In this document: positions 17,565 to 47,770 of the stretch, piece after piece
Position numbering within the stretch: the first letter of the stretch is position 1
How the letters are laid out: each line of letters starts with the position of its first letter
NCBI GenBank assembly: GCA_017547175.1
Contig: JAFYQI010000002.1
Location: 1 to 64,000 of the forward strand
DNA: 64,000 bases
Reading direction: 5' to 3'
Origin: Alistipes sp.
GTDB lineage: Bacteria; Bacteroidota; Bacteroidia; Bacteroidales; Rikenellaceae
Translations under genes and position numbers: made by a program
Notes under the pieces: model-generated
What the model saw: the letters and a program-made list of their open reading frames with translations, nothing else
Told to the model about the DNA's origin: nothing
Database searches by the model: none

Positions 17565-18157
17565 AAAACATAGTCTTTGACCTCGGTGGCGTTGTCTTTA
17601 TGCGCGACCCGAAGAAGTGCACCGAGGATTTCTTGAACTTCTTCAGCTTTGTGCGTCTGGAGCAGATGCCCCACTTCTGGAACGAGTATGACCGAGGCAC
17701 GCTCTCGATCGACGAGGTGAAGGAGGAGCTCTGTCGCTACCACAACTGCGATCGAGCCAAGGTTGACGAGTACCTGCGTTTGGCCATCGATAAGCAGGAG
17801 GTCATCGCCCCTACCGAACGGCTGATCGAGCAGCTGAAAAAGGCGGGCTATCGCCTCTATGTACTTTCGAACATGTCGAAGGAGTTCATCGCTTTCCTGC
17901 GCCAAGTGCCCGTCTATCGCCACTTTGACGGTGAGGTCGTCTCATGCGAAGAAGGCGTGTGCAAGCCCGAAAAGGAGATCTATCAACTCCTGCTCGAGCG
18001 CTACGACCTGAACCCACAGGAGACCCTCTTTATCGACGATCGTAAGGAAAACATCGAGGCCGCCGAGCAGGTGGGCATCACAGGCTTCCACTTCAACCGC
18101 AAGGATATCGCGGGAACGATCGGCGAACTGCGTTCGCAATTAAAAATTAAGAATTAA
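17561..18157 (+). CDS. HAD-family phosphatase (YihX-like)
   Basis: The 198-residue protein starts with the HAD motif I variant FDLGGVVF, has motif II LSNMS near residue 105, Lys in VCKPEKEIY (motif III) and FIDDRKENIEAA (motif IV). A helical cap lies between motifs I and II. HAD subclass IA members of this type act on sugar phosphates or similar small molecules. In motif I the second Asp is replaced by Gly, as in the YihX group. It overlaps the methyltransferase stop by ATGA. A large inverted repeat and a terminator follow. Confidence 0.85.
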   Translation: MKNIVFDLGGVVFMRDPKKCTEDFLNFFSFVRLEQMPHFWNEYDRGTLSIDEVKEELCRYHNCDRAKVDEYLRLAIDKQEVIAPTERLIEQLKKAGYRLYVLSNMSKEFIAFLRQVPVYRHFDGEVVSCEEGVCKPEKEIYQLLLERYDLNPQETLFIDDRKENIEAAEQVGITGFHFNRKDIAGTIGELRSQLKIKN

Positions 18158-18272
18158 AGGTTACTAAAGGCGACTAAAGGGAATTAAGGCGTGAAGGGAA
18201 ATCCTTTGCGCTTTTTTTGCGTTCTCGCCCTTTCCGCCCTTTCCACCCTTATCGCCCTTTAGTAACCTTTAG
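18155..18272 (+). repeat. Large TAAAGG-rich inverted repeat
   Basis: The left arm (18155-18181, TTAAAGGTTACTAAAGG and on) pairs with the right arm (18246-18272, CCCTTTAGTAACCTTTA), leaving a loop of about 64 bases rich in CCCTTTCCG units. The pattern is of short iterated TAAAGG/CCTTTA words. It overlaps the HAD stop codon. Confidence 0.7.
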
Positions 18273-18289
18273 CTACCTTTATTATATAT

Positions 18290-18322
18290 AAAAACCGGCC
18301 GTCAGCGCAACGACCGGTTTTT
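18290..18322 (+). terminator. Terminator of the cvfB-methyltransferase-HAD operon
   Basis: AAAAACCGG (18290-18298) pairs with CCGGTTTTT (18314-18322), with a further CGT/ACG pairing above one mismatch and a 7-base loop. Confidence 0.82.
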
Positions 18323-18402
18323 GATTTTAGAGGAGCTGATTTTGTCATGAACGCAGTAAGCCCCGGATGGGGTGTACTTTGTACATCCCATTCGGGGCTT
18401 GC
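18319..18402 (+). repeat. Dispersed hairpin repeat, copy A
   Basis: TTTTGATTTTAGAGGAGCTG is followed by a 20-bp stem, AAGCCCCGGATGGGGTGTAC with its complement across a TTT loop. The two odd pairs are G-U if read on the plus strand. A second copy with the same 53-base spacing lies at 46443-46527. Confidence 0.72.
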
Positions 18403-18420
18403 TCTTTACAACTATATTAG

Positions 18421-18795
18421 TTATTTTAATATTCGGAAAATATACTTGAAATCTTGGTACGATTTTATTGTCTTAAATTCTTCAGGGAATTGCACCCCGG
18501 CCTTTTTATACAAAAGTTCGTATTTCGTTCTAAGGTCTTCGAGTCTAGCTGGCACATACTCATCATCCGTATATAACACGATTTGTTCCATCTCATAAAA
18601 TATGGCATCATAGAGTAAAAACTTTATATCAGGATGTCCTTTAACTGCCTCTTTTATGAGATCATGTAACGAATTTCGATGCAACATCTTTTTACATATT
18701 TTATCAACATCATTAGTCATTCCCCACACCTTACAAAACAAAATAAACTGCAAAATTGCGACGACAATCAATAAAAGAGTTAATACAATATTCAT
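18421..18795 (-). CDS. Small membrane-anchored hypothetical protein, AT-rich
   Basis: From the ATG at 18795 the product is 124 residues. It has one N-terminal transmembrane helix (MNIVLTLLLIVVAILQFILF) followed by a charged alpha-helical domain with no motif I recognise. Longer in-frame starts reach 18891 but add residues ahead of the helix. Base composition is clearly more AT-rich than in its neighbours, and it is flanked by repeats, so recent acquisition is plausible. No neighbouring gene suggests a function. Confidence 0.5.
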   Translation of the reverse strand: MNIVLTLLLIVVAILQFILFCKVWGMTNDVDKICKKMLHRNSLHDLIKEAVKGHPDIKFLLYDAIFYEMEQIVLYTDDEYVPARLEDLRTKYELLYKKAGVQFPEEFKTIKSYQDFKYIFRILK

Positions 18796-18891
18796 ATCTT
18801 CATGTGCTTTAAAGTTCATATAATTCATTTTGTACCCCATTAATCTGCACACAAAAAAAAGCGCGGTACTTTCAGTATCTCGCTCTGACAA

Positions 18892-19149
18892 GGTGTTTGG
18901 CGTAACCCGAGAAATCGAAACAACAGAAAGCCCACGCCAATTAGCGCAGGCATTTCAATTGTCATTCCTATTTCTCGTTATTCAGTCGCCAAACTTTAGT
19001 CAGAGAAGAAGCAATTAAAACGCTTTTCCAATTATTTTAAGAGTGTGCGTAGTAATTACGCTAATGTTTCATAGGCAGTCTAGTGTTGGTTCGTTTACAA
19101 AATTAGCAAATTATATTTAGCTCCGCAATTTTTGAGCATTTTATTTTTA
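18892..19149. other. AT-rich intergenic stretch without a recognisable gene
   Basis: About 260 bases upstream of the orphan gene hold no convincing coding frame. The sequence is AT-rich and contains short runs of A and T. Together with the structured block that follows, it separates the orphan gene from nqrF. Confidence 0.6.
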
Positions 19150-19154
19150 GAGCC

Positions 19155-19205: not shown

Positions 19206-19330
19206 GCAGAACAGGCGCAAATGTATCCTTCGGATACCGCACATAAAGAAAAAGGATGGATCACGAATTAATTCGCATCCATCCTTTTTCTTTATGTGCT
19301 TACGCCTTTAGGCGATTTGCGCTGTTCTGC
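19206..19330. repeat. Cloverleaf-shaped nested palindrome, possible nqrF terminator
   Basis: An outer stem of 16 bp with one bulge (19206-19222 with 19315-19330) encloses three hairpins. They are GTATCC/GGATAC (19223-19237), a perfect 23-bp stem (19239-19261 with 19277-19299) capped by the palindrome CGAATTAATTCG, and CGCC/GGCG (19303-19314). Together they form a four-way junction. It begins 5 bp past the nqrF stop, so on the minus strand it may end the nqr transcript. Confidence 0.78.
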
Positions 19331-46417: not shown

Positions 46418-46446
46418 GTGGTTATTCTAACCACAACCCGTTTTTT
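46418..46446 (+). terminator. Terminator-like hairpin preceding repeat copy B
   Basis: GTGGTTA (46418-46424) pairs with TAACCAC (46428-46434), followed by AACCCG and six Ts. No plus-strand gene ends here, so it probably belongs to the repeat element. Confidence 0.5.
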
Positions 46447-46527
46447 GATTTTAGAAGAGCCGATATGTGCTTAAACAAAGTAAGCCCCGGATGGGTAGTA
46501 CTGACGTACGTCCCATTCGGGGCTTGC
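46443..46527 (+). repeat. Dispersed hairpin repeat, copy B
   Basis: It has the same layout as the copy at 18319-18402: TTTTGATTTTAGAAGAGCCG, a 53-base run up to the CCCCGGATGGG arm, a variable loop of 16 bases and the arm CCCATTCGGGGCTTGC. It lies between mmdB and rplM. Confidence 0.72.
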
Positions 46528-46564
46528 GAGTAAAGTGCGGAAGGTTCCGCTTAAAATCGGAAAA

Positions 46565-47770
46565 CTATCCGAGGAACGAAAGCAACAGACCAGCTGCCAC
46601 AGCCGAACCAACCACACCGGCTACGTTCGGACCCATAGCGTGCATCAAAAGGAAGTTCGAAGGATTCTCCTCCTGACCTACCTTCTGCGATACACGGGCA
46701 GCCATCGGCACAGCCGAAACACCTGCCGAACCAATCAACGGGTTGATCTTGTTACCCTCCTTGAGGAAGCAGTTCATCAGCTTGGCGAAGAGCACACCGC
46801 AAGCCGAAGCCACACCGAAGGCCACAACACCCATCACCATAATCTTGATAGTCGAGGGGTTCAGGAAAGCGTTGGCCGTAGCCGTAGCACCTACCGTGAG
46901 GCCCAGGAAGATAACCACGATATTCATCAGTTCGTTCTGTACGGTCTTCGAGAGGCGATCTACCACACCCGACTCCTTCATCAGGTTACCCAACATGAGG
47001 CAGCCAATCAGCGGAGCAGCATCGGGCAGGATCAGCGAGATGATCGACGCGATGACGATCGGGAAGAGGATGCGCTCCTTCTTCGAGACCTGACGCAGCG
47101 TGCTCATCTTGATCTGACGCTCCTTCTTGGTCGTCAGGGCGCGCATGATGGGAGGCTGAATCACCGGCACGAGGGCCATATACGAGTAGGCAGCCACAGC
47201 AATCGGGCCGAGGAGCTCGGGAGCCAGACGGGCCGTCAGGAAGATAGCCGTCGGGCCGTCAGCGCCACCGATGATACCGATCGAACCGGCCTGCTCGGGC
47301 GTAAAGCCCATGGCGTAAGCAGCCAGGAACGTAGCGAAGATACCCACCTGTGCAGCAGCACCCAGCAGGAAGCTCTTAGGGTTGGCGATCAGCGGACCGA
47401 AGTCGGTCATAGCACCTACACCCACGAAGATCAAGCAAGGGTAAATACCGAGCTTAACACCCAAGTAGAGGTAATCCAGAAGGCCGGCACCGTGGGCAAA
47501 CTCGCCCCAATGCACATGGCCACCGGCGAAGAGCTCCTCATGGAAGAGACCCGCACCGGGGAGGTTCGTCAGGAGCATACCGAAGGCGATGGTCATCATC
47601 AGCATCGGCTCATACTCCTTCTTAATAGCCAGATAGAGCAGGAAGAAGGCAATTAGGATCATCACCAGGTTACCCCAGCCCATCTCCGAGAAGAAGGCTG
47701 CGAAACCCATCGACGAGAGGAACTTCTCCAGGCTCTCCAGCGCGAAATTCGATTGCAGGAGATTCAACAT
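46565..47770 (-). CDS. mmdB: Na+-translocating decarboxylase beta subunit
   Basis: The 401-residue polytopic subunit, homologous to OadB, GcdB and MmdB, couples decarboxylation of carboxybiotin to Na+ export. Conserved segments include [31 protein letters not shown] and [16 protein letters not shown]. It is the last gene of the mce-mmdA-oadG-mmdC-mmdB operon and lies 3 bp after mmdC. Confidence 0.94.

What the first reader, a model, noticed from the sequence alone, without database searches (positions are those of the whole stretch)
18290..18402. Two-hairpin repeat, copy A, with wobble pairs favouring plus-strand RNA
A terminator-like hairpin with T-run is followed by TTTTGATTTTAG and a 20-bp stem whose two irregular pairs are both G-U if read as plus-strand RNA. 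A second copy at 46418-46527 has the same order and the same 53-base spacing but different loops. This points to a dispersed element or a structured RNA rather than chance.
Basis: seen in the sequence. Interest (0 to 1): 0.6.

Follow-up and report, generated by a model that had tools for sequence, protein, structure and literature searches.

The report
Hairpin repeats parked at stop codons
Two look-alike hairpins in this gut bacterium belong to a scattered family of about 124-letter foldable DNA elements that usually sit exactly at the end of genes, keep their shape while changing almost all their letters, and spread by an unknown route.

Summary
The conserved element is a ~124-nt imperfect rod hairpin (copy A 18318-18440, copy B 46442-46564). 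The GC hairpin at 18290-18322 is not part of it. The host genome has about 21 copies. Relatives were found in 46 of 150 sampled genomes (6 of 22 genera) of the family. All named hits are Alistipes/Rikenellaceae MAGs, nearly all from ruminant gut. Sequence changes widely while pairing is kept: 28 of 39 pairs show two-sided compensation, 0/500 shuffles match, and a model built without window sequences finds both copies. The fold favours the plus strand (GU:AC = 148:22; more stable in 157/164 copies). Yet the neighbouring gene lies on the other strand, and its stop codon abuts the element within -3..+5 nt in 83 of 122 cases; copy B starts exactly at the oadB stop. Near-identical copies at unrelated genes and wholesale replacement at orthologous sites point to mobility. 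Y1/RAYT, IS110 and integron enzymes were not found, nor a host reverse transcriptase. Best reading: a new family of small, structure-recognised, non-autonomous repeats, MITE/ERIC/BOX-like in role, with unusual stop-codon siting and an unknown mobilising enzyme.

The parts
18318..18440 (+). Copy A: full rod element (left arm, main stem, right arm); right arm diverged but still pairing
   Evidence: CM R1 92.2 bits; independent CM R2, built without window-genome sequences, 48.5 bits, E 1.7e-9; fold
18355..18402 (+).
   Evidence: apical pattern GATGGG..TAC..GTA..CCCATT conserved in the family
18290..18322 (+). GC hairpin with T-run left of copy A; probably a local terminator, NOT part of the repeat unit
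   Evidence: not conserved in other copies
18421..18891 (-). 156-aa ORF of unknown family whose 3' end runs ~20 nt into copy A
   Evidence: no Pfam match; the block 18228-19153 is missing from G023 and G008
46442..46564 (+). Copy B: full rod element
   Evidence: CM R1 106.3 bits, R2 60.1 bits E 2.2e-12; fold
46482..46525 (+). Copy B main/apical stem
46565..47770 (-). Sodium-pump decarboxylase beta-subunit-like gene (oadB, named from its sequence); its stop codon 46565-46567 directly abuts copy B
   Evidence: orthologous sites in G023 and G008 also carry an element

Best explanation
The two copies are members of a Rikenellaceae-specific family of small, non-coding, non-autonomous repeats of ~124 nt whose conserved property is a single-stranded fold. 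The fold is a rod with an AT-rich terminal stem, G-A mismatches, a bulge, a GC-rich stem with a fixed G-T/U wobble and a small apical loop. SHOWN by sequence: the family, the fold, the strand preference, the exact placement after stop codons in a fixed orientation, near-identical copies at unrelated genes, and wholesale replacement at orthologous sites. INFERRED: the folded + strand (as ssDNA, or less likely as RNA) is recognised by an unidentified enzyme that inserts or exchanges the unit at the 3' boundary of genes. There it is tolerated because it leaves the protein intact, and in some genes it stands where relatives have an ordinary terminator. In the mRNA of the upstream gene the unit becomes a 3'-UTR hairpin.
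For: ~21 own-genome copies. Covariation: 28/39 pairs, 255 double-change cells against 78.7+-7.8 shuffled. + strand GU 148 vs AC 22, G-A at one position in 33/34 sequences; + fold better in 157/164. Stop codon within -3..+5 nt in 83/122 right-hand genes on the opposite strand (93/122 within +-20; 16 more at 110-180 nt, mostly second units of arrays), against 1 of 74 at the other end. Five identical 125-bp copies on five contigs of G168 beside different genes, boundaries exact. G168 and G180 are 86-92% identical, yet an orthologous site holds a completely different rod between the same TAATTT and AAATT edges. Arrays often combine unrelated units (mutual identity under 0.55 in 12 of 16). Empty orthologues carry a classical terminator in several cases.
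Against: No transposase is linked: no Y1 or IS110 in 31 genus genomes, no RT in the host genome, no integron integrase over cut-off, and no autonomous copy seen. No target-site duplication was found, and no clean recent empty/filled pair (>95% flank identity) was obtained. Many sites are kept across species, which also fits selection at the site plus gene conversion.
Confidence: 0.5

Rival explanations
1. A cis-acting mRNA 3'-end element: the rod in the sense transcript terminates or stabilises the upstream mRNA. It is kept by selection at each gene and homogenised by gene conversion among copies rather than by transposition.
For: Fixed orientation and exact stop-codon contact; the same genes keep an element in different species; empty orthologues often have a classical terminator; mosaic differences between orthologous copies (oadB).
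Against: The sense (gene) strand folds worse than the antisense strand by 15 kcal/mol on average and carries the A-C and C-U mismatches. A T-run after the inner stem on the gene strand is present in only 34/122 copies. Unrelated genes are affected, distribution is patchy, and replacement extends to the rod ends without shared flanks.
Confidence: 0.27
2. A trans-acting structured RNA made from the + strand, antisense to the neighbouring gene's strand, of which the copies are dispersed genes.
For: + strand specific G-U, tandem G-A and bulge conservation typical of RNA folds.
Against: No promoter motif is enriched in front of the + strand. Copies number 20 to over 80 per genome and sit by position relative to the opposite-strand gene. 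No Rfam family matches.
Confidence: 0.1
3. Quasi-palindromes kept perfect by replication template switching, with no selection or recognition of the fold.
For: Template switching can create compensated changes in inverted repeats without selection (general knowledge); arms do covary.
Against: Mismatches at fixed positions (G-A 33/34, C-C/T-C, tandem GA, the fixed G-U 31/34) persist across sub-families, though such a process should erase them. It does not explain dispersal or stop-codon siting.
Confidence: 0.06

Closest known systems
BOX, RUP and SPRITE repeats of Streptococcus pneumoniae (PMC3049150)
   Same: Small interspersed, tightly folded repeats, non-coding; BOX often forms the extreme 3' end and stop codon of genes (36 of 58 overlapping CDSs)
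   Different: No sequence relation tested or seen; here a single rod, stop contact and orientation are the rule, and structure outlives sequence across species
ERIC/RU-1, RU-2, NEMIS/Correia, CIR elements (review PMC2229807)
   Same: ~100-170 bp palindromic intergenic repeats, MITE-like, with RNA-level folds; mobiliser unknown for most
   Different: Those have recognisable consensus sequences and terminal repeats (own knowledge); here terminal stems vary freely as long as they pair
REP/REPIN with RAYT transposases (PMC2817692, PMC3733652)
   Same: Hairpin repeats outside genes, strand-specific ssDNA fold plausible
   Different: No Y1_Tnp in 31 genus genomes; one ~124-nt rod, no GTAG tag tested
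Integron attC sites / V. cholerae repeats
   Same: Long imperfect hairpin, sequence-variable but structure-conserved, strand-selective, immediately after a stop codon (from own knowledge)
   Different: No IntI over cut-off, not in one cassette array, beside housekeeping genes; R-box consensus not seen by eye

Membership tests
MITE-like small interspersed repeat (broad class) | Short, non-coding, dispersed multi-copy, intergenic | tested here: met
MITE-like small interspersed repeat (broad class) | Terminal inverted repeats | tested here: met
   terminal stems pair and covary, but their sequence is not fixed
MITE-like small interspersed repeat (broad class) | Target-site duplication | tested here: inconclusive
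   none visible at 20 fetched copies; no clean recent empty site
MITE-like small interspersed repeat (broad class) | Parent transposon with matching ends | tested here: inconclusive
   no lone or separated half-elements in the fetched loci, but whole genomes were not scanned for them
REPIN/RAYT | Y1 (RAYT) transposase in the genome | tested here: not met
   0 of 31 genomes; controls positive
Integron attC | IntI integrase in the genome | tested here: not met
   TIGR02249: 0 of 31 over cut-off
Retron / group II-related RNA | Reverse transcriptase in the genome | tested here: not met
   PF00078 absent from the host and from high-copy genomes G011, G017, G020, G021, G023
IS110 bridge RNA | IS110 transposase | tested here: not met
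   PF01548: 0 of 31
Known Rfam RNA family | Match above gathering score | tested here: not met
Intrinsic terminator | GC stem followed by T-run on the gene strand | tested here: not met
   5 or more T of 7 in only 34/122 copies

The most novel reading that the evidence does not exclude
A mobile element recognised by the three-dimensional shape of one strand rather than by its sequence, which inserts specifically at the stop codons of host genes through an enzyme class not yet linked to any known hairpin-using transposase, integrase or reverse transcriptase.
Probability: 0.27. Interest if true: 0.85.

Novelty: new variant of a known kind. Interest (0 to 1): 0.56.

Why it matters
Few bacterial interspersed repeats show fold conservation this strong with sequence turned over, or such precise siting at stop codons. 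If mobile, it implies a structure-guided insertion system of unknown chemistry that spares host proteins. If a cis-element, it is a new lineage-wide 3'-end signal in common gut bacteria. Either way the question is testable with strain comparisons and RNA 3'-end mapping.

Tried and rejected
The left terminator as part of the unit: rejected, not conserved. Known RNA family: none. REPIN/RAYT, retron/group II, integron attC, IS110: enzyme absent in host. Autonomous parent: none found. General intrinsic terminator: T-run not general. + strand promoter: not enriched. A fixed downstream motif (GGTCGTGGTGCTGAT): only a weak G/T-rich tail. 'Newest unit is always next to the stop' in arrays: not supported, 6 of 16. 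Clean insertion of copy A alone: not shown, since a ~930-bp block containing it and the 156-aa ORF is what differs from G023 and G008. Viral contigs: no match to the apical pattern. Literature: no description of this family found in four searches.

Full report
What is there. Copy A and copy B were re-read, folded and aligned. A BLAST of 85 nt of copy A against the host genome (1.99 Mb, 12 contigs) gave about 15 dispersed relatives. Aligning them showed that the unit is longer than reported: the left arm TTTTTGATTTTAGAGGAGCAGATTTTG pairs with a right arm CAAAATATGCCCTATAAAATCGAAAA beyond the reported end, so the whole is one ~124-nt rod. The upstream GC hairpin of copy A is not shared. A covariance model (R1) finds about 21 copies in the genome.

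Is it more than chance. In the first alignment 18 of 40 pairs have two-sided compensation. In a second alignment of 34 diverged relatives containing no sequence of the window genome, 28 of 39 pairs do. There, 94.8% of cells pair against 74.3% shuffled, and the covariation score is 0.575 against 0.188 shuffled and at most about 0.10 with slid partners. The model from that alignment (R2) recovers both window copies on the + strand at E 2e-12 and 1.7e-9.

Where it occurs. R1 found it in 14 of 41 near relatives, all of the same genus, with no hit in 16 other-family genomes. R2 found it in 46 of 150 genomes and 6 of 22 genera of the family, patchily even within the genus. A DNA pattern of the apical stem over 85,000 species genomes hit at least 119 stretches; every record listed is an Alistipes/Rikenellaceae MAG, nearly all from ruminant guts. 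Viral contigs gave none.

Strand. In 157 of 164 distinct copies the + strand folds better, by 15 kcal/mol on average. At the consensus pairs, G-U outnumbers A-C 148 to 22 and 60 to 13 in the two alignments. Fixed G-A mismatches and a tandem GA lie on the + strand. I read this as selection for one strand's fold, as RNA or single-stranded DNA. No promoter supports + strand transcription.

Position. In 122 of 153 copies with a right-hand gene, that gene is on the opposite strand. Its stop codon lies within -3..+5 nt of the element's end in 83, and within +-20 in 93. Another 16 lie at 110-180 nt, mostly because a second unit intervenes. At the other end only 1 of 74 + strand genes ends within +5 nt. 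Copy B begins at the base next to the oadB stop (46565-46567). Orthologous genes without an element end at the same residue, so proteins are not truncated in most cases inspected. A few copies lie just before a start codon (lpxB-like gene, L020/L027). Copy A is an exception: the 156-aa ORF runs about 20 nt into it. Genes were called as simple ORFs of 70 codons or more, so some right-hand neighbours may be misassigned.

Turnover. Orthologous sites often keep an element across species whose flanks are 70-93% identical. The elements differ by paired changes: 81 double, 38 single over 15 ortholog pairs, counted on pairs that both sequences form. Between G168 and G180 (86-92% identical) one unit is replaced by an unrelated rod between the same edges, one partly differs, one is about 94% and one nearly identical. 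Arrays mostly join unrelated units. These facts favour movement or precise exchange over slow in-place evolution, but a strict presence/absence polymorphism was not obtained.

How it might work. Families that move by hairpin recognition were tested through their enzymes: Y1/RAYT, reverse transcriptase, integron integrase and IS110. All are absent from the host, although RTs occur in 12 of 31 genus genomes. No autonomous copy was seen. The mobilising enzyme is therefore unknown and the mechanism is inferred. The main rival is a cis-acting 3'-end signal spread by gene conversion; a classical T-run terminator is not general.

Comparison. The nearest known kinds are BOX/RUP/SPRITE (PMC3049150) and ERIC/RU-2/NEMIS/CIR (PMC2229807). 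The present family works like these in the broad sense, but membership in any of them is not claimed.

Noticed in passing
window 18821-19077: A ~250-bp conserved segment upstream of the 156-aa ORF (..GCTCTGACAAGGTGTTTGGCGTAACC..CGCCAAACTTTAGTCAGAG..) recurs in other genomes beside unrelated sequence, more than once within G023, G005 and G004. It looks like a structured leader or mobile 5' region; no Rfam match.
   Followed up: partly
window 18155-18198 and 18238-18281; also beside L010, L013, L016: Runs of CTAAAGG spaced ~9-11 nt, inverted around a terminator-like hairpin, occur near several element copies.
   Followed up: no
window 19239-19300: Long near-perfect inverted repeat (AGCACATAAAGAAAAAGGATGGAT..ATCCATCCTTTTTCTTTATGTGC) after the nqrF stop, where relatives carry the rod element.
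   Followed up: partly
window 18228-19153: A ~930-bp block with copy A, the 156-aa ORF and the leader-like segment is absent between the HAD gene and nqrF in G023 and G008.
   Followed up: partly
L020/L027 (G000:C7:305765), L045 (G000:C7:465452): Element copies end within a few bases of the start codon of a downstream gene on the same strand, unlike the usual stop-codon siting.
   Followed up: no
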